Positions 50,201-61,036 of a stretch of 64,000 nt of DNA are shown here, one piece after another. Source of the stretch: Bosea sp. AS-1 (GTDB taxonomy: Bacteria > Pseudomonadota > Alphaproteobacteria > Rhizobiales > Beijerinckiaceae). The translations under genes and the position numbers were made by a program. Location of the stretch: positions 62,001-126,000 of the forward strand of contig NZ_CP022372.1 of the NCBI RefSeq assembly GCF_002220095.1. The letters run 5' to 3'. The notes beneath the pieces are model-generated. The model ran no database searches. It saw only the letters and a list, made by a program, of their open reading frames with translations, and was not told the DNA's origin. Position 1 is the first letter of the stretch. The number at the start of each line of letters is the position of its first letter.

Positions 50201-50301
50201 TCGAGAGGGTGATGGTCGAGGCACCCCACCCTGCGGTGCAGCTGCGGGTCCCCCTCGCCGTCGAGGCCCGCGCCGCTGGCAACTGGGACGAGGCTCACTG
50301 A
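47260..50301 (+). CDS. polA: DNA polymerase I
   Basis: 1013 residues with all three activities. N-terminal 5' nuclease domain ([25 protein letters not shown]). The 3'-5' proofreading domain appears intact: [21 protein letters not shown] and [10 protein letters not shown]. Polymerase motif [30 protein letters not shown] and [13 protein letters not shown]. The ATG at 47260 is chosen by homology; the in-frame upstream starts overlap the divergent nitroreductase. Confidence 0.98.
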
Positions 50302-50370
50302 GGCCGCCATTCCCCGATCTTACGGCGCCCGCCAAGCGGACACCAAAGGCAGGCGAGCCGGTTCCCTGAC

Positions 50371-50396
50371 GGAACAGAAACGGGGGCGCCCGCGTT
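50371..50396 (+). promoter_or_regulatory. EcfG-type promoter (exact, N17) for the DUF883-like gene
   Basis: GGAAC-N17-CGTT, 102 bp before the start of the DUF883-like gene. Confidence 0.78.
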
Positions 50397-50497
50397 GGCG
50401 CCACGAAGGAGGCTTGCGCCAAGCGAGTCTCTTGCGGCGAGCGGCCGGTCCGGCCACCATCGCGCCGCACGGTATCGAGCGACAGGGAACGAGCGTC

Positions 50498-50857
50498 ATG
50501 GCGAGAGCGACATCTTCGAAACGTTCGGCGGCCGCGGCTGCCAAGAGCGCCAAGGCCGAAATCGAAGCCGGCGCCGAGGATGTCGCGGCGGAAGCACGTC
50601 GCGCCGGTGCCCGGGCCAAGCGGCAGGCCAGCGCCCTCGAAGAGACCTTGACCCGCAGCGCCGAGGACATCGCCGCGACCGTCAGCGACCGCCTGCGCGC
50701 GGTCGGCGTCGATACCGACCGGATGGCCGATGTCGCCAGAGAGCAGGCGAGCGAGCTGCAGAAGCTGATCGAGGACGAGATCCGCGAGCGGCCCCTGCGA
50801 GCCCTGGGTCTGGCTGCCGCCGTCGGCCTCTTCGTCGGCTATCTTTCGGCGCGCTAG
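50498..50857 (+). CDS. DUF883/ElaB/YqjD-like membrane-anchored helical protein
   Basis: 119 residues. A long helical region (residues 10-90, rich in Ala, Glu, Arg) is followed by a C-terminal glycine-zipper membrane anchor, RPLRALGLAAAVGLFVGYLSAR, typical of the YqjD/ElaB/DUF883 family, whose members tether ribosomes or protect membranes in stationary phase. Followed after 3 bp by the next gene. An exact EcfG-type promoter lies upstream. Confidence 0.85.
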   Translation: MARATSSKRSAAAAAKSAKAEIEAGAEDVAAEARRAGARAKRQASALEETLTRSAEDIAATVSDRLRAVGVDTDRMADVAREQASELQKLIEDEIRERPLRALGLAAAVGLFVGYLSAR

Positions 50858-50860
50858 CCC

Positions 50861-51295
50861 ATGCTCGGGGGGCTCGGATCCTTCATCGCTTCGGAAGTCT
50901 CCGGAACGGTGAAACGCAATGCGACAGTCATCGGCCTGTTCGCCTTCGCCGCGCTGCTGCTGGTCTGCGCCGGGGGCTACGCACTCAGCGCGCTGCACAC
51001 CGTCCTGGCGGAGCGCTACGGTGCGGTTGCGGCCAGCCTCTGGATCGCAGGTGGGCTCGCCGCCACCGCGCTGATCGCGTTCTGCATCGGCCTCTTCGTC
51101 AAGAACCGCCCGCGCCCGCCGCGACCGGTTGCCGCGACCGCAGCGCTGGCCGCAGCGCCGCTCGCCGCCCGGATGCTGACCTCGAAGACCGGCTGGCGTG
51201 TGGTCGCGCTGGCGGGGATCGGCGTGCTGGGAACCATCCTCGGCCGCCAGCTTTTCTCGGGCTCCGACGACGGCGAGGGTGGGGACGAAGCCTGA
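50861..51295 (+). CDS. Putative membrane protein next to DUF883 gene (phage-holin/YqjE-like)
   Basis: 144 residues with two strong membrane segments (NATVIGLFAFAALLLVCAGGY and ASLWIAGGLAATALIAFCIGLFV) and a weaker third near the C terminus (VVALAGIGVLGTILGRQLF). The pairing with a DUF883 gene mirrors yqjD-yqjE. In the same transcription unit, so probably EcfG-dependent. Function unknown. Confidence 0.75.
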   Translation: MLGGLGSFIASEVSGTVKRNATVIGLFAFAALLLVCAGGYALSALHTVLAERYGAVAASLWIAGGLAATALIAFCIGLFVKNRPRPPRPVAATAALAAAPLAARMLTSKTGWRVVALAGIGVLGTILGRQLFSGSDDGEGGDEA

Positions 51296-51374
51296 CGCCG
51301 ATTCCGGCTTCAGGGTGGACGCGACCCGTCTTTTTACATAGGGATGCCATCCTGTGTCCTGTAACAGGATAGGC

Positions 51375-52754
51375 ATGTCTGCTCTGGCGAGGCCCCGCAA
51401 CCGCTTGCCGTTTCCCGCGTTTCCGAGGCTGGGCGCCCGCTTGCGCTCGGCGACCGTCACGATCATCGCGATCAGTGTCGTCGCCATCGCGGTCATCCTG
51501 GCGGCCTGGATCAATCTGCAGGCGCGCCGCGCCGCGGACAGCGTTTCGCATGCGATCGAGATCCGCGAACGGGCGGAACGCTTCCTGGGCCGGGTCCGTG
51601 ATGCCGAGACCGGGCAGCGCGGCTATCTGCTCACCGGCCAGGCCGCCTATCTCGAACCCTTCACCGAAGGCAGTGCTGCGGCCGTCCCGGAGCTCGAGGT
51701 GCTCGCGGCGCTGGTCGACGCCGACCCCGCCCAGAAGCAGCGGGCCGCGACGCTACGCGAGGCGACGCTCACGAAGCTCGCGGAACTGAACCAGACCGTG
51801 GAACTCGCGCGCAACGGTCGCCGCGACGAAGCCATCGCCGTGCTTCGCGACGGGCCCGGCGTCGCCACCATGGACAAGCTGCGCGATCTCGTCGGGGAGA
51901 TCCAGCAAGCGGAGAATATCCGTCTGCGCTCGCTTTATCGCCGCGAGGAACGCCGCCGCCTGTGGGGAAGCAGCGGCATCGTCGTCGCCCTCGCCGGGCT
52001 CGCCTTCGCCGCGTGGCAGGTGCTGCGCAGGCGACAGCGCCGCAGCACGCAACTCGCGGTCAGCAATGCCGAGCTGGAGCAGATCGTCAGCGACCGCACC
52101 CGGGAGCTCGAAAGCGAGCGCCTGCGCATCGAAGCCCTGCTGCGCGACGTCAACCACCGCGTCGGTAACAACCTCGCCATGGTGTCGGCACTGCTGAACG
52201 TACAGAGCCGCCAGACCCGCGAGCCAGCGGTCAAGGCAGCGCTGGCGCAGGCGCAATCCCGCATCCAAGCGATCGCCGCCGGGCAAAGGCGGCTGCGTCT
52301 CGACATCGAGACCGACGCGATCGATGCACGACCCTATATGGAGGATCTCCTCGCCGAGATCGGAAAATCAGCCGAGGGGCGGCCGATCTCGATCAATCTC
52401 GATATGGATTCGATCAGGCTGCCCGGGCGGGACGCCGTCTCCTACGTCGTCATCGTCAACGAACTCGTCACCAACGCGATCAAGCATGCCTTCCCGGACG
52501 GCATGACCGGGCAGATCGCGATCCGCCTGGCCCGCGTCGAGCAGGAGGGCGAGCCAGCCCTGTCGCTCTCGATCGAGGACGATGGGGTCGGCATGCCGGC
52601 GGAAATCCAGAACAAGGGGCTCGGCCAGACCGTGATCGCGAGCCTGCTTCGCAGCATGCGCGCGACAATGACGTCCCAGCCGCTTCATCCCGGCAGCGAA
52701 CGCCCCGGAACCCGCGTCACGGTGATTTTCCCGAAGCGCGACAGCGCAGCTTGA
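51375..52754 (+). CDS. Membrane sensor histidine kinase: CHASE3 + HisKA_2 + HATPase
   Basis: 459 residues. First membrane segment VTIIAISVVAIAVILAAWIN, CHASE3 sensor domain (ERFLGRVRDAETGQRGYLLTGQAAYLEPF), second membrane segment (SSGIVVALAGLAFAAWQVL) and a coiled linker. The HisKA_2 phosphoacceptor is DVNHRVGNNLAMVSALLNV (His near residue 264), followed by an intact HATPase with N box VIVNELVTNAIKHAFPDG and EDDGVGMP. HisKA_2 kinases often feed PhyR. No EcfG box is visible upstream. Confidence 0.9.
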   Translation: MSALARPRNRLPFPAFPRLGARLRSATVTIIAISVVAIAVILAAWINLQARRAADSVSHAIEIRERAERFLGRVRDAETGQRGYLLTGQAAYLEPFTEGSAAAVPELEVLAALVDADPAQKQRAATLREATLTKLAELNQTVELARNGRRDEAIAVLRDGPGVATMDKLRDLVGEIQQAENIRLRSLYRREERRRLWGSSGIVVALAGLAFAAWQVLRRRQRRSTQLAVSNAELEQIVSDRTRELESERLRIEALLRDVNHRVGNNLAMVSALLNVQSRQTREPAVKAALAQAQSRIQAIAAGQRRLRLDIETDAIDARPYMEDLLAEIGKSAEGRPISINLDMDSIRLPGRDAVSYVVIVNELVTNAIKHAFPDGMTGQIAIRLARVEQEGEPALSLSIEDDGVGMPAEIQNKGLGQTVIASLLRSMRATMTSQPLHPGSERPGTRVTVIFPKRDSAA

Positions 52755-52803
52755 GTTAGCCGAGAGCGGCTTTTCGCCCGGTCCTCTGGTGAATTCTGAA
52801 GCT

Positions 52804-53181
52804 TCAGGCCATGCTCTTGCGGCCCAGCCCCCCAATCGCCGCCATGACGAAGGCTGCGACCTCGCGCGTCGAGAAAGGCTTGCGCAGAAAGCGGGCCTGC
52901 CGCAAAGGCTTCGGCACCTCATGCGGCGCGGAACCGGACACAAAGGCGAAGGGGATGCCGGTCCTCTGCAGCGCATCCGCGACCTCGAAGGTCTTGCCAT
53001 CGAGAACATCGATATCGAGCAGAGCGCAGGAGAGCTGGCCGGCAGCCTCCCGCCGCGCCTGGGCGACCGACTCGACGACGATCAGCTCCGCCCGGTCACC
53101 GAGCTGTTCGGCCACGGCCGCCTCGATGTCCATGGCGATGAACGGGTCGTCTTCGACAATGAGAACGCGGATATCAGCCAT
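52804..53181 (-). CDS. Single-domain response regulator
   Basis: A 125-residue receiver domain alone. Acidic pocket IVEDDP (near 10), phosphoacceptor Asp in CALLDIDVLDGKTF (near 57), Thr/Ser position FAFVSGS, and Lys in FLRKPFS (near 104). It is convergent with the CHASE3 kinase. An exact EcfG-type promoter lies 38 bp before the ATG, so it may give feedback within the stress response. Confidence 0.92.
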   Translation of the reverse strand: MADIRVLIVEDDPFIAMDIEAAVAEQLGDRAELIVVESVAQARREAAGQLSCALLDIDVLDGKTFEVADALQRTGIPFAFVSGSAPHEVPKPLRQARFLRKPFSTREVAAFVMAAIGGLGRKSMA

Positions 53182-53218
53182 CGAACGGCTTTCTTACTCA
53201 CTTCAACCTGCTACCCCC

Positions 53219-53243
53219 AACGTAACAGGCAGACCGATGTTCC
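53219..53243 (-). promoter_or_regulatory. EcfG-type promoter (exact, N16) for the response regulator
   Basis: On the minus strand GGAAC-N16-CGTT, 38 bp before the start. Confidence 0.8.
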
Positions 53244-53334
53244 TGATCTTACGCGGATTCGGCCCTGGTTACGTCCCATTTGATTCAATTTTGCGGAGAC
53301 AAGGTTAGCGAAGCGTAAGCGATCGCTCCGGCCG

Positions 53335-53823
53335 TCAGCGCCGACGGCCGGCAGGGGCGAGCGTCAGCTCGAACTGCGTCACGCCGACGGCGACATTGAA
53401 GCCGCGCGTCGTTTGAACCACCCGCGGCCGCAGCGTGACCTTGTCCTCCTCGCCGCCGACGAGCGCGGATCCGCCCGTGCCGGCTCCGGGAGGGGACGAC
53501 GCGGCGTAACGTCCGTTCAAAGCCCCCAGCGGCGCGCGCGCATAGGGTCCGTAGACATGCCAGGCCATGGTGGTCCCGCGGATCGTGCCGAGATCGAGGC
53601 CGAATTGACGGACGATGCCGGTATAGTGCTGCGTCGGCCCCCGGCGCGGCCTGAAACGGCAATCGAGCGGTCGCTGCGATTTGATGCTGGCGCCCAGGGC
53701 CGTCCCGATCGAGCAAGACAAGCGCCCGGTCGGAGGCCCCGACTGGGCCAGTGCCGGAGCGGCCGAAAGGCAGGCAAAGGCCGCTGCTGCGCCCAGGCAC
53801 CAGCGGGAATATCGAATGCTCAT
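53335..53823 (-). CDS. Exported DUF992-family protein
   Basis: 162 residues. Signal peptide WCLGAAAAFACLSAAPALAQ, then DUF992-like sequence with paired Cys (GRLSCSIG, LDCRF) and a tail VGVTQFELTLAP. Periplasmic, function unknown. GGGAG lies before the ATG at 53823, and an exact EcfG-type promoter 32 bp upstream. Confidence 0.85.
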   Translation of the reverse strand: MSIRYSRWCLGAAAAFACLSAAPALAQSGPPTGRLSCSIGTALGASIKSQRPLDCRFRPRRGPTQHYTGIVRQFGLDLGTIRGTTMAWHVYGPYARAPLGALNGRYAASSPPGAGTGGSALVGGEEDKVTLRPRVVQTTRGFNVAVGVTQFELTLAPAGRRR

Positions 53824-53854
53824 GTTGATTGCTCCCGCGAGGTGACCGAACGAA

Positions 53855-53879
53855 AACGCCTCAAGATGCCCACAGTTCC
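53855..53879 (-). promoter_or_regulatory. EcfG-type promoter (exact, N16) for the DUF992 gene
   Basis: On the minus strand GGAAC-N16-CGTT, 32 bp before the DUF992 gene start. Confidence 0.8.
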
Positions 53880-53928
53880 GGCTTAATGGAACCACCGAGA
53901 CCTTGTTGCGTTGCGGCTTCATCTTGGC

Positions 53929-54180
53929 ATGGGAATGTCGATGTCCGTGAGTCGCCTGCGGGGAGAAACCCCAACAATCATGAACCCGGCCGGCGGGGAC
54001 GTCGTGCCTGTGCCACCGTTCTGGGAACTCGAGGACCTGATTGCGACCGGGCTCACACTCGACGACGCCCTGCTGATCATGGCCGCACGCCGCGCCGAGC
54101 TGATGCTGGTCGACGCCGACAAGCCGGACCGGCGCTCCTTCCAGCGGCTTGCCGCCTGGCGTTTCGGGCTGACGTTCTGA
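53929..54180 (+). CDS. Small hypothetical protein (about 83 aa), uncertain
   Basis: A short reading frame with a plausible helical C-terminal half (FWELEDLIATGLTLDDALLIMAARRAELML). No family recognised. Several in-frame ATGs are possible (53929, 53935, 53941 and 53980). Only the last has a GGGGAGA nearby, at a rather long spacing. It lies between two minus-strand genes, and a GGAAC at 53888 lacks a matching -10. Confidence 0.35.
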   Translation: MGMSMSVSRLRGETPTIMNPAGGDVVPVPPFWELEDLIATGLTLDDALLIMAARRAELMLVDADKPDRRSFQRLAAWRFGLTF

Positions 54181-54206
54181 TCCAGCCGCCGGCACCAGTC
54201 TTCCCC

Positions 54207-55034
54207 CTATTGGCAAAAGCGCGAGGCGCGCGAGCGCCGCTCCTGAATATCGACATGCAGGTGATTGGCGTGGGCGGCATCGGAGCCAGGGCCAAGCGCC
54301 GTCATGAAGGCGCCGCAGGCCGATTGGCGCACCGCGGTCAGAAAGCTGTTCTGCGCCAGCCCCATCGGTTTCTCGACCGCGACCTGAACCGCGGTCTTTC
54401 CCTCGCCTATCCGGAACGCGAAGATGTCGAGCGCCTTGCCGGTCGCATGCTCGCTGACGGGCCCGGCCGATGCCCTGTTGCGTCGCCGGCACTCATGCCC
54501 GCCACCAACGCGCAGGCTGGTCAAGTCATTGTCGAAATGCCCCCGAGCCAGTGGCTGGACGCTGTCGCCGAGCCAGTCGGCTACAGCCTTCGCCATCGCG
54601 CAGCCGAGCGTCACGGGCGGCTCGAAGGCAACGATCTGCGCCTTTCCCGACGCGCGCAGCGCGAGCGCCTTCACGACGACCGGCTCGCTGACGCGGCAGG
54701 CCGGCTCGCCCTGCGCGAGCTTCGGATCGGCGGCCTCGATGTTGTTGCCCGGTATCGTCTTGAGCCGAGCGAGACATGAATCGCCACCCCTGTCGGTGCT
54801 GGGCTCGGCTCGCTCGGCTGGACCTGGTTGCGCCGCCCCTCCGGACTCAGCCGGGCGCTGAACCGGCCTGTCGAGGACGGGCGCGCCAAACTCTACAGGC
54901 CGCCTCGGCGGAAGCTGCAGCGACAGCGCGGGCTCTACAGGTTTTTCCTGCGCGACAGCAAACACATCCCCGAGAAGGACGGTCACACTACAGAGCAGCA
55001 AAATCCGGAGGAGCCTGCGTCCGCGCCGGTTCAG
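54207..55034 (-). CDS. Exported extensin-like C-terminal domain protein
   Basis: About 275 residues. N-terminal hydrophobic export segment LLRILLLCSVTVLLGDVFAVAQ, a proline-rich linker (LQLPPRRPVEFG), then the extensin-like C domain: CLARL, LGCAMAKAVADWL, SEHATGKALDIFAF (His and Asp near 205-215) and the end ANHLHVDIQ. This resembles the metal/peptidase-like fold of such cell-wall proteins. No ATG fits. A CTG at 55034 overlaps the TGA of the upstream small gene as CTGA; a TTG at 55001 is the alternative. Confidence 0.7.
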   Translation of the reverse strand: MNRRGRRLLRILLLCSVTVLLGDVFAVAQEKPVEPALSLQLPPRRPVEFGAPVLDRPVQRPAESGGAAQPGPAERAEPSTDRGGDSCLARLKTIPGNNIEAADPKLAQGEPACRVSEPVVVKALALRASGKAQIVAFEPPVTLGCAMAKAVADWLGDSVQPLARGHFDNDLTSLRVGGGHECRRRNRASAGPVSEHATGKALDIFAFRIGEGKTAVQVAVEKPMGLAQNSFLTAVRQSACGAFMTALGPGSDAAHANHLHVDIQERRSRASRFCQ

Positions 55035-55195
55035 CCATCCAGGGCCGAGGCGCTCGCGACCGCAATGCTCGTCAAGGCTGCAAGCACCAGCGAGAGAAGC
55101 TCGCTGGTGAATGCACCGGGCTGCACGGTCCCCGAATACAACGCCGCGGCGACCGAAACAGCGCCTGCGGCGGTAGCCATGAACGTCGTCGCCAT
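55031..55195 (-). CDS. Small membrane protein (54 aa)
   Basis: 54 residues, ATTFMATAAGAVSVAAALYS then FTSELLSLVLAALTSIAVA: two hydrophobic stretches. The ATG at 55195 follows GGGGAGG. The stop overlaps the putative start of the extensin-like gene, so the two are probably translated in a coupled way. An exact EcfG-type promoter lies 47 bp upstream. Confidence 0.6.
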   Translation of the reverse strand: MATTFMATAAGAVSVAAALYSGTVQPGAFTSELLSLVLAALTSIAVASASALDG

Positions 55196-55241
55196 GGTCC
55201 ACACCCTCCCCAACTGCACGCCAACCCGACATGAAGTCGCG

Positions 55242-55266
55242 AACGCCTGATTGCGAGGCTTGTTCC
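55242..55266 (-). promoter_or_regulatory. EcfG-type promoter (exact, N16) for the small protein/extensin-like pair
   Basis: On the minus strand GGAAC-N16-CGTT, 47 bp before the 54-residue gene. Confidence 0.8.
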
Positions 55267-55330
55267 GCGGCCTTCGTCAAAAGAGGCCCCGCATCTCGGG
55301 CGCGGAGCCGATCGTGTTGCAAAACGGCGG

Positions 55331-56125
55331 CTATGCCGCCTTCCGGCCAGCCCGGCGATCGAAGAACAGCGCCTGGCTGATCGCCGCCTTCACCGCTTCC
55401 GGCTGGAACGGCTTGGTGATGAGGAAGGCCGGCTCAGGCCTGTCGCCCGTCAGGAGCCGCTCGGGGTAGGCGGTGATGAAGATCACCGGCACGTCGATCG
55501 AGGTCAGGATCTCATTCACGGCATCCAAGCCGGAGCTGCCATCGGCGAGCTGGATATCCGCAAGCACCAGCCCCGGACGCTTCTTGCCAACGAGGGCGAT
55601 CGCCTCGCGCTGGGTCCGGGCGACGCCGGTGACGCTGTGGCCGAGCTCCTCGACCATCGTCTCGATGTCGAGCGCGATGATCGGCTCATCCTCGATGATC
55701 AGGACATCCGTCGCGACCTGCTCGGCGATTTCCTGGCCCGCGGTCTGGACCAAGGCCGCGGCGTCCGCAGCCGAGACCTGCATGATGGCGGCAACCTCGT
55801 CGATCGAGAAGCCTTCCACCGTGCGCAGCAGGAAGGCCTGCCGCGGGCGCGGCGTCAGCGCCTCGAGGTTGCGCTCGGCCGACGAGCGCCCGAGCTCGAC
55901 CACCGGCTCGCTCGTGTCGAGTCCGACCGAGGACCAGAGCTTCAGAAAGACCCGGTAGAGCCCGATGCGCGGGTCGATGTCGCGCGGAAAGCCGGAGGGG
56001 TCCGCGACGAGCGCTTCCAGCATGGCGACGACATGAGCGTCTCCGCTGGCTTGCGTGCCGCTGAGCGCGCGCGCGAAACGGCGCAGATAGGGCAGGTAAG
56101 GCGCAATTTCCTTGGCAATCGACAT
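55331..56125 (-). CDS. phyR: PhyR, general stress response anti-anti-sigma regulator
   Basis: 264 residues with the diagnostic order sigma-like domain (APYLPYLRRFARALSG at the start; LTPRPRQAFLLRTVEGFSIDEVAAIMQV) followed by a receiver (VLIIEDEPIIALDIETMVEELGHSV; phosphoacceptor Asp in LVLADIQLADG; Lys in FLITKPFQP). When phosphorylated it binds NepR and frees EcfG. Divergent from nepR-ecfG. The ATG at 56125 follows AAGGA. I saw no EcfG box on its own strand. Confidence 0.97.
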   Translation of the reverse strand: MSIAKEIAPYLPYLRRFARALSGTQASGDAHVVAMLEALVADPSGFPRDIDPRIGLYRVFLKLWSSVGLDTSEPVVELGRSSAERNLEALTPRPRQAFLLRTVEGFSIDEVAAIMQVSAADAAALVQTAGQEIAEQVATDVLIIEDEPIIALDIETMVEELGHSVTGVARTQREAIALVGKKRPGLVLADIQLADGSSGLDAVNEILTSIDVPVIFITAYPERLLTGDRPEPAFLITKPFQPEAVKAAISQALFFDRRAGRKAA

Positions 56126-56202
56126 TAATGCGTCCTTTTTATCGTGCGCGCATAATGGCTTAGGCCTTGCAAGAGACAAGCGATTTATTTTTGCACGCGA
56201 TG

Positions 56203-56227
56203 GGAACATTTCGATGTGACGCCGGTT
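56203..56227 (+). promoter_or_regulatory. EcfG-type promoter (N16, GGTT variant) for nepR-ecfG
   Basis: GGAAC-N16-GGTT, one base off CGTT, 112 bp before nepR. It suits autoregulation of the sigma factor operon, as known in relatives. Confidence 0.65.
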
Positions 56228-56339
56228 TAAAAGGCGTATTGGTGTCGCCATCGCCATCCGGGATCGGCTCCGCCATCATTGGAACTCTGGATCCGGGACC
56301 TGCTGGAAAAGCAGGCCTGGCTTTGGCGCGAGGGCTGAA

Positions 56340-56561
56340 ATGACGAATCTGGATGCTGCGATGCCCGACCCCGGAGGCGATAACGACGACTTCGACATGA
56401 TTCTCGATCCGAAGGTGCAGGAATCGATCGGCCGCTCGCTGAAGGCGCATTACGACGACATCGTGAATGCCCCCGTGCCCGACAAGTTTCTCGTGCTGCT
56501 GGCGCAGCTGGAAGCGACGGAACAGCGCGCAGCCGGAGCGTCGTCCGATGAGCGGAAATGA
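56340..56561 (+). CDS. nepR: NepR anti-sigma factor
   Basis: A 73-residue acidic helical protein with the NepR core LDPKVQESIGRSLKAHYDDIVNAPVPDKFLVLLAQL. It sequesters EcfG until PhyR takes it away. Follows GAGGG. Overlaps ecfG by 14 bp. Confidence 0.93.
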   Translation: MTNLDAAMPDPGGDNDDFDMILDPKVQESIGRSLKAHYDDIVNAPVPDKFLVLLAQLEATEQRAAGASSDERK

Positions 56562-57120
56562 TTTCGCGACCGAGTTCAAGGATGGCCTGATCAGGGAAAT
56601 CCCCAATCTGCGCGCCTTCGCGGCGTCGCTGTCGGGGTCGATGCAGCTTGCCGATGACCTGGTGCAGGACACGCTGCTGAAGGCCTGGGGCAATTCCGAC
56701 AAGTTCGAGCCGGGGACCAGCCTGCGCGCCTGGCTCTTCACCATCCTGCGCAACACCTATTATTCGCTCTACCGCAAGCGCGGCCGCGAGGTGCAGGACA
56801 GCGAAGGGACCTATGCCGAGCGCATGGCGACCCAGGGCAACCAGGAAAGCCATCTCGACCTCGCCGACTTCCGCAAGGCCCTGGCCAAGCTGCCGGAGGA
56901 GCAGCGCGAAGTGCTCATCATGGTCGGAGCCACCGGACTCTCCTACGAGGAAGCTGCGGATATCTGCGGCGTCGCCATCGGCACCATCAAGAGCCGCGTC
57001 AACCGGGCTCGAACAAAGCTTGCCGAACTCCTTTCCATAGGCAGCGTCGACGATCTCGGGCCGGATCGGACCAGCGCGGCCGCGATGCAAAGGGCGGGTT
57101 CCGAAACAGTCGGGTTCTGA
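56548..57120 (+). CDS. ecfG: EcfG-type extracytoplasmic-function sigma factor
   Basis: 190 residues. Region 2 (LADDLVQDTLLKAWGNSDKFEPGTSLRAWLFTILRNTYYSLYRK) and region 4 (LPEEQREVLIMVGATGLSYEEAADICGVAIGTIKSRVNRAR). This is the ECF15/EcfG form without an extra C-terminal domain. It directs transcription from GGAAC-N16/17-CGTT promoters. The ATG at 56548 overlaps the nepR end. Confidence 0.96.
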   Translation: MSGNDFATEFKDGLIREIPNLRAFAASLSGSMQLADDLVQDTLLKAWGNSDKFEPGTSLRAWLFTILRNTYYSLYRKRGREVQDSEGTYAERMATQGNQESHLDLADFRKALAKLPEEQREVLIMVGATGLSYEEAADICGVAIGTIKSRVNRARTKLAELLSIGSVDDLGPDRTSAAAMQRAGSETVGF

Positions 57121-58773
57121 ATGCGTCTGGCGCGGTTCCGTACTGTCCGGGGGCGTCTTCTGGCGCTCCTGATCGCGATCGCGCTCCCGATCGGCTGCGT
57201 GACAGCCTTGGCTGCGGCTACCGCCTACCGCACCATCACAGGGGCCATCGAGGCCTCGCAGATTCAGGCGGCGGACGACTTCGCCGTCCGGACGCGGATC
57301 TGGTATCGCGGCGCGTTGCGCGCGCTCCTGTCCTTCGGCGCGACGGTCGCCGATGCCGGGCTGTCGCCCGAGCAGTGCAAGCAGGTGGGCGCCAAGACGC
57401 TCACCCAGGTCAGCGGCTTCACCGCCGCCCTGATCCGCACCGCCGACGGACGGTCGTGCACGGCGACGCTGGATGCCAGCATCGATGCGCAGACCCTGAC
57501 CCAGACGGCCACAAAGCTGCGCGACCTGCCGGCCATCGTCCCCTGGGGCGGCGTCGAGCTCGGCAAAGCCCATTACAACCAGGTCGCAATCGGAAGCCGC
57601 CGCTATCTCACCGTCCATGCCGAAGATCCCGCGGCAACCGGGTCGAGCATGCAGGAAGCCCTGCTGCTGATCGACCCGGAGGTGCTCGAGAGCGTCTTCG
57701 ACCTCGGCGAAGGCGGCGACGGCATGGATGTCGCGCTCGTCTCGCAAGGCAGCGGCGTGGTCGCCAGCCGCGGGCGCAACGAGCCCGAGTCGTGGCTGCC
57801 GCGCGAAGCCCATCTTCCGCAGGGGCTCGAGCGCTGGCGTGCGCCGAGCCGTGACGGGACCGAGCGCGTCTACGCGGCCCGCAAGGTCGCCGAGCCCGCC
57901 TTCTACGTCATCGCCACCTTCGACGATTCGCGCGAGCGTGCGGCGCGCATCCAGTTCGCGGTCCTGCTCCTTGCGCCGCTCGCAACCTTGACGTTGTTGT
58001 GCCTGGTCTATCTGCGCGCCATCGATCGTCACTGCGTGCGCTGGCTGCGCAGCATCGAGGCGGCGGCACGCTCCCGCGCCTCAGCAAAACGCGCGCGCGC
58101 CGCCGTGGCCGACGACATGCCGAGCGACATCCGCAGCGTCGCCGAAGCCTTCAATATCATGGTCGACGAACAGGAAGTGCGGCAGCGGCGCCTGCAGACC
58201 GCGCTCGACGACAACCGCTTCCTGGTGCGGGAACTGCACCATCGGGTGAAGAACAGCCTCCAGGTGGTGCAGAGCTATATCGGGCTCAGCAAGCGCGACT
58301 ACCGGGACGAGGCCAGGCTCGCCCTGGCGGACGCCGAATGCCGCGTCCATGTATTGTCGGCCGCGTATCGGTTCACGCTCGCCGACGGCGAGATGCAGCC
58401 GGTACGGGTCGACCTGTTCCTGGAGGACGTGGTCTCGATGATCTCCAACCTGATCCGGCGCCGCGACCAATGGATTTCCAGCCGGATCGAGACGGCCGCG
58501 ACATTATCCGTCGACCGCATCATCCCTCTCGGCTTCCTCGTGGCCGACGTCGCCTCGCGGGTGTTGCGCAATACGCCCGGTGCGCGGATCACCGTGACCG
58601 TCAACGATGTCGATGAATCGACGATCGAGGTCGCGCTGGAGGCCGATCGCCCGATCGCCCATCAGGAGCCGCCACGCCTGTTCGCGGGCCTGCTGGCCCA
58701 GATCGAAGCAGTCCAGAGCGGAAAGGCCGAGGGCAGCGATCTCGGGCGTTGGCGCGTCAAGCATCGCGGCTGA
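57121..58773 (+). CDS. PhyK-like membrane HisKA_2 sensor kinase with a divergent ATPase region
   Basis: 550 residues, starting on the base after the ecfG stop. Two membrane segments (LLALLIAIALPIGCVTALAA and QFAVLLLAPLATLTLLCLVYL) flank a periplasmic sensor domain of about 240 residues. A HAMP-like linker and the HisKA_2 box RELHHRVKNSLQVVQSYIGL (His near residue 377) follow. The ATPase region has LGFLVADVASRVLRN where an N box with VNELVTN is expected, and no clear G-box is seen. It may phosphorylate weakly or act as a PhyR phosphatase. Confidence 0.85.
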   Translation: MRLARFRTVRGRLLALLIAIALPIGCVTALAAATAYRTITGAIEASQIQAADDFAVRTRIWYRGALRALLSFGATVADAGLSPEQCKQVGAKTLTQVSGFTAALIRTADGRSCTATLDASIDAQTLTQTATKLRDLPAIVPWGGVELGKAHYNQVAIGSRRYLTVHAEDPAATGSSMQEALLLIDPEVLESVFDLGEGGDGMDVALVSQGSGVVASRGRNEPESWLPREAHLPQGLERWRAPSRDGTERVYAARKVAEPAFYVIATFDDSRERAARIQFAVLLLAPLATLTLLCLVYLRAIDRHCVRWLRSIEAAARSRASAKRARAAVADDMPSDIRSVAEAFNIMVDEQEVRQRRLQTALDDNRFLVRELHHRVKNSLQVVQSYIGLSKRDYRDEARLALADAECRVHVLSAAYRFTLADGEMQPVRVDLFLEDVVSMISNLIRRRDQWISSRIETAATLSVDRIIPLGFLVADVASRVLRNTPGARITVTVNDVDESTIEVALEADRPIAHQEPPRLFAGLLAQIEAVQSGKAEGSDLGRWRVKHRG

Positions 58774-58788
58774 CGGGGCCTGGCCCGC

Positions 58789-59679
58789 TCAGCCGGTCTG
58801 CACGGTTGCCCCTTCGTCGGGCTCGATCAGGACACCGACGGAAAGTCCCACGAAGGAGCCCGGTGGACCGGTGAAGCTGCCGGCGATCGGTGAGGCATCC
58901 TCCGGCACGCGTGCGACCGCGATCCGCAGCAGTTGATGGTCGGCGACGAGATCGTTGGTCGGGTCGAATTCGACCCAGCCATCTCCCGGGATGAAGACGT
59001 CCGCCCAGGCATGGGTCAGGCCGACGGGCGAGACGAGGCCGGCGGCGTCCGGAGACTGGTCGTGGATATAGCCGGTGACGAAACGCCCCGCGAACCCCAT
59101 GCGCCGGGCCAGCTCGATGAACAGCCAGGCATAGTCGCGGCAGGAACCCTGGCCGAGCCGCAGCGTGTCGGCCGGGTGCTGGGTGCCCTCGTCATAGCGC
59201 ACCGCGTAATGCAGCTCGGTATAGATCGCGTGGGCAAGATCGCGCAGGAGATGGCCGGACCCCTCGCCGAGCCGGGCGCGAAAATCGGCGAGCCAGCGTT
59301 CGATCACCCCGTCGGGGTCGGCGGCCGCCCGCGCGAGATAAGGCTGCAGCACGATCCGTTCGCCATCGCTGTAGACAACTCCGGTCAAGGCCGCGCCGGG
59401 TTCGAGCCGGCTGCGTGGCAAGGCCGAGCCGAACCGCTCGACCGTCAGTTCGCTGACGATCTCGAGCGTGTCGGCGGGGGTCGCAAAATCGGCGATGGCG
59501 ACCGGATTGCCATAGACATCGTGCATCCAGCGCAGGTTCGCCTGAGGCGAGATCGCCAGGGCGGTATCCACCAGCCGCAGGTCAAAACTGTCGCGCGGCC
59601 GCAGCATCAGCCGATGCAGGCCGAAGCTGACGGGCGTGGCGTAACGATAGGTCGTCGCGTGGCGGACGCGCAGATACAT
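58789..59679 (-). CDS. Transglutaminase-like cysteine protease family protein
   Basis: 296 residues with the bacterial transglutaminase-like N-terminal domain (YLRVRHATTYRYATPVSFG) and the Cys-His-Asp core. Cys is in LGQGSCRDYAWLFIELARRMG (near residue 180), His in GLTHAWADVFI and Asp in WVEFDPTNDL. The start is the ATG at 59679 with AGGA before it; a further in-frame start upstream would lie inside a terminator-like T-run. Cytosolic by sequence. An EcfG-type promoter lies upstream, with a hairpin between. Confidence 0.9.
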   Translation of the reverse strand: MYLRVRHATTYRYATPVSFGLHRLMLRPRDSFDLRLVDTALAISPQANLRWMHDVYGNPVAIADFATPADTLEIVSELTVERFGSALPRSRLEPGAALTGVVYSDGERIVLQPYLARAAADPDGVIERWLADFRARLGEGSGHLLRDLAHAIYTELHYAVRYDEGTQHPADTLRLGQGSCRDYAWLFIELARRMGFAGRFVTGYIHDQSPDAAGLVSPVGLTHAWADVFIPGDGWVEFDPTNDLVADHQLLRIAVARVPEDASPIAGSFTGPPGSFVGLSVGVLIEPDEGATVQTG

Positions 59680-59702
59680 GACTCTTCCTGGCCGCAGGGG
59701 GC

Positions 59703-59732
59703 GAACAAAAAACAAGCCGCCCGAAGGCGGCT
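59703..59732 (-). terminator. Intrinsic terminator between the 91-aa gene and the transglutaminase gene
   Basis: On the minus strand: AGCCGCC-TTCG-GGCGGCT and then TGTTTTTTG, a 7-bp GC stem with a T-run. It ends the upstream gene, but it also lies downstream of the EcfG-type box at 59764-59788 and upstream of the transglutaminase start. Confidence 0.85.
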
Positions 59733-59763
59733 CGAAGTGCAGCGCGAGGAGCGCCGCGCGGTC

Positions 59764-59788
59764 AACGCGCGGTGCGTGGAACGGTTCC
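59764..59788 (-). promoter_or_regulatory. EcfG-type promoter (exact, N16) facing the transglutaminase gene
   Basis: On the minus strand GGAAC-N16-CGTT, 85 bp before the transglutaminase start and just after the stop of the 91-residue gene. A terminator-like hairpin lies between it and the gene. Confidence 0.78.
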
Positions 59789-59795
59789 GTCCTCC

Positions 59796-60071
59796 TCAGC
59801 GAAGAATGACGCGACGCTCGCTCTCGGCCATCGCCTGCTTGGACGCGGCGGGAATAGCGCGATGAACGACGCTCTCGCTGCGATCCGACCGATCGACAGC
59901 AGCAAATTGCGCTTCATTCGGCTGAGCGCCTCGCAGCTGAGCGACCGTCGTCGAACTCTGGTCGGCCGGCAGTTGCAAGCCGGCGCCGAAGGTCAGGCCG
60001 GCCACCACCGCCGCCATGCAACCGAAAAAAATCAAAGCCCGCTTGGCGGGGGCCAGGCTGTCATTCAGCAT
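59796..60071 (-). CDS. Small membrane-anchored protein (91 aa)
   Basis: 91 residues. A cytoplasmic start LNDSLAPAKR, one membrane segment (LIFFGCMAAVVAGLTFGAGL) and a 60-residue hydrophilic, probably periplasmic tail. No family recognised. GGGAG lies before the ATG. An exact EcfG-type promoter 53 bp upstream makes it a probable general-stress gene. Confidence 0.75.
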   Translation of the reverse strand: MLNDSLAPAKRALIFFGCMAAVVAGLTFGAGLQLPADQSSTTVAQLRGAQPNEAQFAAVDRSDRSESVVHRAIPAASKQAMAESERRVILR

Positions 60072-60123
60072 CTTTGTCTCCCAACGCCTCCACCGACCCG
60101 AATAGGCCGGCTGTCACAAGCAA

Positions 60124-60148
60124 AACGCAATTCCACGAGCCAGGTTCC
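60124..60148 (-). promoter_or_regulatory. EcfG-type promoter (exact, N16) for the 91-aa gene
   Basis: On the minus strand GGAAC-N16-CGTT, 53 bp before the gene start. Confidence 0.8.
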
Positions 60149-60206
60149 CGAGAAGGCGTTTCGAACGCGAGAGACAACGACATGAAGTGGGAAAGCCGGC
60201 CGCAAG

Positions 60207-60232
60207 GGAACGGCGGAGAGGCTGGCAGCGTT
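60207..60232 (+). promoter_or_regulatory. EcfG-type promoter (exact, N17) for the Crp/Fnr gene
   Basis: GGAAC-N17-CGTT, 49 bp before the Crp/Fnr start and divergent from the box at 60124-60148. Confidence 0.8.
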
Positions 60233-60280
60233 ATCTTGGTGTCGACGCGGTTCTGCGTCGCCAGGGGGTCGAATCCAGTG

Positions 60281-61036
60281 ATGCATCTCAAAACCAGGCC
60301 AAGCCGCCTCGGGCCTGCCTGTCTCGCCTGCCCGCTTCGCGTGATGCCGGCGTTCGAAGACAAGACCGATGACGAGCTTCGCTTCATCCAGGCGATGAAG
60401 ATCGATCATCGAAGCGTGTCGGCCGGCAGCGACATCATTCATCCGGGTCAGGAAGACGCCGAACTCTACACGCTCTATTCGGGCTGGGCATTCCGCTATA
60501 AGTCGCTGGCAGACGGGCGCCGCCAGATCCTCAACTTCCTGCTGCCGGGCGATCTCGTCGGCCTCCAGGCTTCGCTGCTCGACGCGTCGGACCACGGTGT
60601 CGAGGCGCTGACGGATGTCGAGCTTTGCGTGTTTCCGCGCAAGCGGATCTGGGACCTGTTCGTGCGGATGCCCAACCTCGCCTATGAGCTCGCCTGGCTG
60701 GGCTCGCGCGAGGAATCGATCGTCGACGACAACCTGACATCGGTTGGCCAGCGCACCGCCAGCGAACGCATCGCAGCCATGGTCATCACGCTCTATCGTC
60801 GCGCCGATGCGCTCGGGCTGGTGAACGAAGGCAGCTTCGCCTTTCCCCTGTCGCAGCAGCAGCTCGCGGACGCGCTAGGCCTCTCGCTCGTCCATACGAG
60901 CAAGACTTGGTCGAAGCTGCGCAAGGCGGGGCTGTTCGCCATGTCCGGCGGCCGGCTGACACTGCTCAATCCGCGCCTGACCGCCCGCATGGCGGCCATC
61001 TACGAAAGGAACAAGGCGCCGCGGCCCCTCATCTGA
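60281..61036 (+). CDS. Crp/Fnr-family transcriptional regulator
   Basis: 251 residues. A cyclic-nucleotide-binding-like beta-roll (SGWAFRYKSLADGRRQILNFLLPGDLVGLQA) and a helix-turn-helix of Crp type (FPLSQQQLADALGLSLVHTSKTWSKLRKAGL, near 185-215). A single CxxC (GPACLACPLR) lies near the N terminus, not the four Cys of Fnr. The ATG at 60281 (or the GTG three bases earlier) is chosen because the EcfG-type promoter at 60207-60232 would exclude longer forms. Confidence 0.9.
   Translation: MHLKTRPSRLGPACLACPLRVMPAFEDKTDDELRFIQAMKIDHRSVSAGSDIIHPGQEDAELYTLYSGWAFRYKSLADGRRQILNFLLPGDLVGLQASLLDASDHGVEALTDVELCVFPRKRIWDLFVRMPNLAYELAWLGSREESIVDDNLTSVGQRTASERIAAMVITLYRRADALGLVNEGSFAFPLSQQQLADALGLSLVHTSKTWSKLRKAGLFAMSGGRLTLLNPRLTARMAAIYERNKAPRPLI

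What the first reader, a model, noticed from the sequence alone, without database searches (positions are those of the whole stretch)
50371..60232. Dense EcfG regulon around the phyR-nepR-ecfG locus
Eight GGAAC-N16/17-CGTT-type boxes lie in 10 kb (seven exact, one GGTT variant). Every one is in an intergenic gap, points at the next gene, and sits 30-115 bp from its start. Exact matches of this length are expected about once per 64 kb by chance on both strands. Targets include unknown envelope genes (DUF992, a 54-aa protein with an extensin-like protein, a 91-aa membrane protein), a lone receiver and a Crp/Fnr regulator, so the map proposes new stress functions.
Basis: partly seen in the sequence, partly recalled or inferred. 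Interest (0 to 1): 0.75.

Follow-up and report, generated by a model that had tools for sequence, protein, structure and literature searches.

The report
Stress-regulon hub with candidate small RNA
Around the master switch of the stress response in this Bosea genome lies a conserved cluster of stress-type promoters, and one of them appears to drive a tiny regulatory RNA rather than the neighbouring gene.

Summary
The boxes are real. The genome has 103 exact sites; no other 9.9-kb stretch among the listed places holds more than three. In 38 Bosea-like phyR loci the boxes recur upstream of the same genes (DUF883 28 of 28, p54 18 of 18, lone receiver 34 of 38, p91 37 of 37 with GGTT allowed) and upstream of eight neighbouring control genes only once in 253 cases. 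An EcfG regulon hub is well supported by sequence; expression could not be tested.

It looks like the promoter of a ~51-nt RNA resembling GsrN of Caulobacter; the same scan recovered Rfam's CC3552 sRNA in Brevundimonas. (2) A kinase, an SdrG-like receiver and a PhyT-like phosphotransferase lie beside phyR, so a whole phosphorelay may sit in one locus. (3) phyR has no box in any of the 38 Bosea-like loci but has one in 32 of 41 others. Crp/Fnr is a weak target (11 of 34).

The parts
50371..50396 (+). EcfG-type box, N17, upstream of DUF883 gene
   Evidence: exact box in 28 of 28 orthologous upstream regions
50498..50857 (+). DUF883_C (ElaB/YqjD-like) protein, 119 aa
   Evidence: Pfam PF19029 4.7e-08
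50861..51295 (+). holin-superfamily-like membrane protein, 2-4 bp behind DUF883 in 28 of 28 loci
   Evidence: Pfam Phage_holin_3_6 below cut-off; gaps
51375..52754 (+). CHASE3-HisKA_2 histidine kinase (HK1) with intact ATP-binding motifs; candidate phosphorelay entry kinase
   Evidence: Pfam; HRxxN and N-box invariant in 30 of 30 rows
52804..53181 (-). single-domain receiver, SdrG-like, 125 aa
   Evidence: best PDB sequence match SdrG 5ieb, 1.4e-11; D56 in 39 of 39 rows
53219..53243 (-). EcfG-type box, N16, upstream of the receiver
   Evidence: exact box in 34 of 38
53335..53823 (-). DUF992 protein
   Evidence: Pfam PF06186 3.1e-32
53855..53879 (-). EcfG-type box, N16, upstream of DUF992
   Evidence: exact box in 28 of 37, GGTT in 2
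53888..53912 (+). EcfG-type box, N16, divergent, 8 bp from the previous one
   Evidence: exact box in 23 of 25
53941..54180 (+). small protein gene (53911-54180 as the longest ORF; start uncertain), no Pfam match
54207..54986 (-). extensin-like C-terminal domain protein (start uncertain)
   Evidence: Pfam PF06904 6.3e-43; box within 450 bp upstream in 30 of 34
55031..55195 (-). 54-aa small membrane-like protein
   Evidence: no Pfam or NCBIfam match
55242..55266 (-). EcfG-type box, N16, upstream of the 54-aa gene
   Evidence: exact box in 18 of 18
55331..56125 (-). PhyR anti-sigma-factor antagonist
   Evidence: Pfam PhyR_sigma2, PhyR_sigma-like, Response_reg
56203..56227 (+). variant box GGAAC-N16-GGTT upstream of nepR-ecfG
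   Evidence: 16 of 38 exact; the other 22 all GGAAC-N16 with one change in the -10
56340..56561 (+). NepR anti-sigma factor; only NepR match in this genome
   Evidence: PF18557
56548..57120 (+). EcfG sigma factor
   Evidence: Pfam
57121..58773 (+). PhyT-like HisKA_2 protein (HK2): phospho-acceptor motif HRxxN present, ATPase domain degenerate
   Evidence: no HATPase match; HHRVKN in 39 of 39
58789..59679 (-). transglutaminase-like protein
   Evidence: Pfam PF01841, PF08379
59707..59757 (-). candidate ~51-nt EcfG-dependent small RNA: 5' hairpin with C-rich loop, then terminator (59713-59734)
   Evidence: 5' end inferred from the box
59764..59788 (-). EcfG-type box, N16, promoter of the candidate RNA
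59796..60071 (-). 91-aa protein, all named homologues found are from Bosea
   Evidence: 35 homologues
60124..60148 (-). EcfG-type box, N16, upstream of the 91-aa gene
   Evidence: exact 28 of 37 and GGTT in the other 9
60207..60232 (+). EcfG-type box, N17, upstream of the Crp/Fnr gene
   Evidence: exact 11 of 34, GGTT 2
60281..61036 (+). Crp/Fnr-family regulator (start uncertain)
   Evidence: Pfam cNMP_binding, HTH_Crp_2

Best explanation
This is the core general-stress-response locus of a Bosea and the densest part of its EcfG regulon. Inferred mechanism: stress makes HisKA_2 kinases (HK1 here among them) phosphorylate the SdrG-like lone receiver; the degenerate kinase HK2 passes the phosphate to PhyR; PhyR~P takes NepR off EcfG; EcfG with RNA polymerase reads the nine boxes. 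These drive nepR-ecfG, the receiver itself, DUF883-holin (perhaps through to HK1), DUF992, a small protein divergent from it, p54-extensin, p91, in some species Crp/Fnr, and a ~51-nt terminated RNA (59757-59707) whose C-rich loop would pair with G-rich ribosome-binding regions, as GsrN does in Caulobacter. Shown: sites, genes, conservation, RNA-like structure. Inferred: sigma dependence, phosphate flow, RNA existence and action.
For: Density: 8 exact boxes in 9.9 kb, P about 2e-11. Conservation in 38 Bosea-like loci: exact boxes at the targets listed in the parts, 1 box in 253 upstream regions of eight control genes, reversed pattern 0 at the targets. In an unconditional test the box is the best or second-best retained gapped 9-mer of 495 for DUF883, receiver, DUF992, small gene, p54 and p91. 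Across 110 loci fetched first, 534 exact boxes against 29 reversed (30 of those loci overlap others). Relay: HK1 motifs intact, HK2 HRxxN invariant without HATPase match, receiver nearest to SdrG in the PDB. RNA: box-hairpin-terminator order in 18 of 20 loci with a box; in the own genome model R1 scores 75.7 bits here and 27.1 at the next place; 20 of 37 same-genus genomes have a match of 38 bits or more, and in the 14 of these whose phyR place is known it lies 3.6-4.6 kb away; RNAalifold gives the same two hairpins.
Against: No expression data. Genome-wide the pattern is barely above its reversed control (103 against 96). nepR's own box ranks 76 of 495 in the retention test because its -10 varies, and the transglutaminase-side box ranks 6. 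The receiver lacks the FATG motif (FVSG in 37 of 39 rows) and reaches no SdrG-family cut-off. C-rich hairpins arise in 15% of shuffled leaders (561 of 3800); of 20 loci with a box, L009 and L028 fail the hairpin test; L008 matches the model (47.8 bits) without a box. Covariation is modest (4 pairs; on A2, pair and type counts are within the shuffles). Model R1 was built with the window's own sequence.
Confidence: 0.75

Rival explanations
1. The 59764 box is the promoter of the transglutaminase gene; the hairpin and terminator are a leader through which some transcripts read, perhaps regulated as an attenuator.
For: Every one of the 20 loci with box and RNA-like leader also has the transglutaminase gene downstream, and six loci without that gene (L012, L014, L015, L049, L052, L060) also lack the box. 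In three Phreatobacter loci the box again lies 115-138 bp before it.
Against: A terminator-like hairpin lies between box and start in 18 of 27 such loci and in none for the eight other targets. Pairing of the leader with the terminator's 5' arm is short and changes from locus to locus. Ten of 20 leaders have no ATG or GTG, the window's among them.
Confidence: 0.25
2. The 5' hairpin and terminator are only the 3' end of the p91 transcript; the box between p91 and terminator is a chance or weak site.
For: The terminator stands behind p91, 9 of 9 loci with a CGTA remnant and 2 of 9 without a box keep it, and L008 keeps an RNA-like match without a box.
Against: Box and C-rich hairpin go together: 18 of 20 with a box, 1 of 18 without (not corrected for kinship). 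The spacing between box and hairpin is constant to a few bases. The blind box-plus-terminator scan found 14 of 280 boxes in Bosea-like loci, all 14 at this site, and 0 in the mirrored control.
Confidence: 0.12
3. The boxes cluster only by shared ancestry or base composition and most are not used by EcfG.
For: Conservation alone does not show transcription; the genome-wide count is near background.
Against: Retention far above other gapped 9-mers of the same regions, spacer switching between N16 and N17 with the box kept, orientation always towards the gene, and the same box known for EcfG elsewhere (PMC6599016, passages).
Confidence: 0.05

Closest known systems
EcfG/PhyR/NepR general stress response of Alphaproteobacteria
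   Same: PhyR, NepR and EcfG domains, gene arrangement and the GGAAC-N16/17-CGTT box.
   Different: phyR has no box in 38 of 38 Bosea-like loci, against 32 of 41 others with one; nepR-ecfG has an off-consensus -10 in 22 of 38; many small unknown genes carry boxes here.
[quoted passage not shown] introduction)
   Same: A HisKA_2 protein with HRxxN and a degenerate ATPase domain beside phyR, a single-domain receiver, HisKA_2 kinases.
   Different: In S. [quoted passage not shown] here receiver and one kinase sit at the phyR locus and the receiver has its own conserved box. The receiver has FVSG in place of FATG.
GsrN sRNA of Caulobacter (PMC5869019: passages; section 14) / Rfam RF01529 CC3552
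   Same: EcfG-type box, closeness to the phyR locus, 5' C-rich loop, intrinsic terminator; the predicted 51 nt equal the stable 51-54-nt 5' isoform of GsrN.
   Different: About half the full length; no Rfam match; only the general plan is alike. That RF01529 is gsrN is inferred from name, length and place, not read in a call.
mmgR (suhB family RF00519)
   Same: Also a C-rich loop with a terminator; secondary R1 matches of 31-41 bits (L306, L308-L310) look like it.
   Different: The window's RNA scores 16.6 bits against a cut-off of 41. The mmgR label for those loci is recalled, not searched.

Membership tests
PhyR-NepR-EcfG general stress response locus | PhyR with sigma-like and receiver domains, NepR, EcfG side by side | tested here: met
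   Pfam hits over cut-off
PhyR-NepR-EcfG general stress response locus | EcfG box before nepR-ecfG | tested here: met
   GGTT variant in the window; 38 of 38 loci have GGAAC-N16 with at most one change in the -10
PhyR-NepR-EcfG general stress response locus | EcfG-dependent transcription of the targets | not testable with these tools
   needs RNA data
PhyT/PhyP | HRxxN in the DHp domain and degenerate ATPase domain, encoded at phyR | tested here: met
   HHRVKN in 39 of 39; no HATPase match; adjacent to ecfG
PhyT/PhyP | phosphotransfer between receiver and PhyR | not testable with these tools
   biochemical
SdrG / FAT GUY single-domain receivers | nearest relative SdrG, phospho-acceptor Asp | tested here: met
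   5ieb best PDB match; D56 in 39 of 39 rows
SdrG / FAT GUY single-domain receivers | PFxFATG[G/Y] motif | tested here: not met
   FVSGS in 35, FVSGA in 2, no match in 2 of 39 rows; the 2 are non-orthologous hits of loci lacking the gene. It may work like SdrG; it is not filed as a FAT GUY member
GsrN | EcfG box and closeness to phyR | tested here: met
GsrN | exposed C-rich 5' loop | tested here: met
GsrN | sequence/structure family RF01529 | tested here: not met
   no match at gathering or up to E 1; hence GsrN-like, not GsrN
GsrN | base pairing with target mRNA and stress protection | not tested
   no target search made

The most novel reading that the evidence does not exclude
The 59764 promoter makes a minimal, about 51-nt EcfG-dependent sRNA conserved in many Bosea and, with another stem, in Phreatobacter: an unprocessed counterpart of the active 5' half of GsrN, sitting inside a locus that also encodes the complete phosphorelay feeding PhyR, with feedback placed on the receiver instead of on phyR.
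Probability: 0.5. Interest if true: 0.65.

Novelty: new member of a known kind. Interest (0 to 1): 0.5.

Why it matters
It gives a conserved, ranked list of EcfG targets in a genus for which the searches found no dedicated study (one paper holds 'Bosea', 'general stress response' and 'PhyR'; one holds 'Bosea', 'sRNA' and 'general stress'; both seen as listings). It attaches a stress role to families without known function (DUF992, p54, p91) and proposes a very small sRNA whose design can be tested directly against GsrN. It also makes a wiring question testable: what changes when the sigma factor no longer feeds back on phyR but on the receiver.

Tried and rejected
Considered and rejected: that the genome-wide count is informative by itself (103 against 96 reversed); position was needed. 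Own genome outside the window: 90 listed boxes, 34 inside predicted genes, 56 outside, 42 of these pointing at a start within 250 bp, 17 pointing away from one; second Bosea genome G012: 92 boxes outside its cluster, 26 inside, 66 outside, 51 pointing at, 36 away (a home-made gene finder). Conserved box-gene pairs between both genomes: 17 of 42 and 51; the mirror control also gives 8, mostly divergent neighbours of the same sites.

HK1 as part of the DUF883 operon: left open, since gaps of 52-235 bp and a weak terminator-like site (51317-51331) lie between. A sigma-70 promoter for phyR: a TTGTC element is kept upstream in the rows shown, but the consensus scan found none in the region. The first alignment A1 misplaced the loop in some rows, so only 11 of the 20 sequences went into A2 and model R1. 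PhyT structure search in the PDB by sequence gave nothing. RNA target prediction was not attempted. No structure was predicted.

Positive control for the RNA scan: of 13 Brevundimonas or Caulobacterales loci with box plus terminator, 11 match RF01529 at gathering and L070 and L074 do not; L064 has RF01529 but the scan missed it, L076 has neither. Three Phreatobacter and two Kiloniellales-type loci found by the scan match no Rfam RNA there.
Full report
What is there. The window is part of a Bosea genome: the nearest PhyR loci in named genomes are Bosea, and the assembly G000 has 5,838,389 bases in three contigs. Between 50371 and 60232 lie eight exact GGAAC-N16/17-CGTT boxes and one GGTT variant. 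Genes: DUF883 and a holin-like protein, a CHASE3-HisKA_2 kinase, a lone receiver, DUF992, a small protein, an extensin-like protein preceded by a 54-aa protein, PhyR, NepR, EcfG, a second HisKA_2 protein, a transglutaminase-like protein, a 91-aa protein and a Crp/Fnr regulator. The genome has one NepR and a second EcfG-like sigma factor at 51% identity.

More than chance. The genome holds 103 exact matches against 96 for the reversed pattern, so the pattern alone is near background; the cluster is not (8 against 0.17 expected, P about 2e-11; the next densest stretch of that size among the listed places has three). Across the 80 named loci and 30 short ones fetched first, 534 exact boxes stand against 29 reversed.

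Conservation. I defined 38 Bosea-like loci as those with PhyR at 83% identity or more (some carry other names, such as L020 Methylobacterium sp. and L027 Beijerinckiaceae). Exact boxes within 250 bp upstream: DUF883 28 of 28, lone receiver 34 of 38, DUF992 28 of 37, small gene 23 of 25, p54 18 of 18, p91 28 of 37 (the other 9 have GGTT), nepR 16 of 38, transglutaminase 15 of 30, Crp/Fnr 11 of 34. Controls: holin 0 of 28, HK1 0 of 29, phyR 0 of 38, ecfG 0 of 38, HK2 1 of 38, methyltransferase 0 of 37, GGDEF 0 of 21, polA 0 of 24. In an unconditional test, every gapped 9-mer of the window's upstream regions was sought in the orthologues: the box ranks first of 495 for DUF883, receiver, p54 and p91, second for DUF992 and the small gene (the first there being the neighbouring box), third for Crp/Fnr, sixth for the transglutaminase and 76th for nepR. 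nepR's -35 is kept in all 38 with one change in the -10 in 22.

Wiring. No box with up to one mismatch points at phyR in any of the 38 loci, while 32 of 41 other loci have one with C or GGTT; the nine without are mostly the nearest relatives (six of them L032, L033, L035-L038). In S. melonis PhyR, NepR and PhyT depend on EcfG (PMC6599016, passages). HK2 resembles PhyT: HHRVKN in 39 of 39 rows and no ATPase domain match, as described for PhyT in PMC5898713. HK1 keeps HRVGN and NELVTNAIKHA in 30 of 30 rows. The receiver's nearest PDB relative is SdrG, but all 37 orthologous rows carry FVSG where SdrG's group has FATG, and within the genome it leads the next receivers only slightly in a related model, 35.4 against 33.5 bits, none over the cut-off. 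The relay is therefore a proposal.

The 59764 box. A terminator scan of 50300-60400 showed a 9-pair stem with six T at 59734-59713 on the minus strand, between this box and the transglutaminase start. A terminator-like hairpin lies in that place in 18 of 27 loci and in none for the eight other targets. The 75 nt behind the box fold at -38.6 kcal/mol, z -3.0. In 20 loci including the window the leader begins with a short hairpin, 6-9 nt behind the box, with a loop such as TCCTC or TCCCCTC, then ACTTC and the terminator. The stem changes with pairing kept: GGCGC/GCGCT, CGATG/CATCG, GGCAC/GTGTC. On the model-fitted alignment 95.8% of cells pair, four pairs have changes on both sides, and 2 of 500 shuffles reach the covariation score; the count of cells with double changes is reached by 26 and the count of pair types by 97 of 500; on the smaller A2 the pair and type counts are reached by 76 and 441. 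RNAalifold predicts the same structure.

Distribution of the RNA. Model R1 gives 75.7 bits at this place and 27.1 at the next in the own genome. Of 61 genomes searched, 60 have some match at E 0.1 or better, mostly weak; 20 of the 37 same-genus genomes have one of 38 bits or more, and the 14 whose phyR place is known have it 3.6-4.6 kb from phyR. One other genome of the order, G055, has 40.9 bits at a place that has no box nearby and looks like mmgR (label recalled). Three Phreatobacter loci have an exact box and, by eye, a hairpin with loop TTACCCTTCCC or alike before the terminator, at 18-26 bits. Of 38 p91 loci, 18 of 20 with a box have the C-rich hairpin and 1 of 18 without (Fisher 2e-7, not corrected for kinship; the hairpin rule is met by 15% of shuffled leaders).

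Control. The same blind scan (box followed by terminator within 170 nt) found 14 of 280 boxes in Bosea-like loci, all at this site, 18 of 190 in the others, 1 of 90 and 0 of 92 elsewhere in G000 and G012, and 0, 1, 0 and 0 in the mirrored controls. Of the 18, 13 are Brevundimonas or Caulobacterales loci, 11 of which match Rfam RF01529, which I take to be gsrN. PMC5869019 reports gsrN-like genes near the phyR locus in Caulobacteraceae and proposes others in Rhizobiaceae, Rhodopseudomonas and Bradyrhizobium (section 14); Bosea is not named in that section.

Rest of the regulon. Outside the window 42 of 56 intergenic boxes of G000 point at a start (mirror 17), and 17 box-gene pairs are shared with G012, among them Ku, a PNPOx-like protein, a zinc peptidase and a nucleotidyltransferase. 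So the cluster holds a sizeable part of the exact-consensus regulon, but not most of it. In other clades the boxes near phyR stand mostly before other genes, which suggests repeated recruitment to this locus.

Verdict. An ordinary system in its core, confirmed and extended; the small RNA is the part most worth an experiment.

Noticed in passing
G012 C1:3786004-3827523 (L255-L259): A second dense box region in another Bosea genome: 13 exact boxes in 41.5 kb against 0.96 expected, with glycogen/alpha-amylase family genes and DUF892.
   Followed up: partly
L043:12105 and L046:7308 (minus strand): Kiloniellaceae and Denitrobaculum loci have a box followed by a C-rich stretch and a strong terminator, another possible EcfG-driven RNA; no Rfam match.
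   Followed up: no
56126-56202: Upstream of phyR a TTGTC element after an A/T-rich stretch is kept in the rows shown of the alignment, possibly a housekeeping promoter.
   Followed up: no
53855-53912: Two divergent EcfG boxes lie 8 bp apart and are both conserved in Bosea.
   Followed up: partly
G000 C3:1179435-1182034 (L125): Three exact boxes in 2.6 kb, one of the two densest other places of the genome.
   Followed up: no
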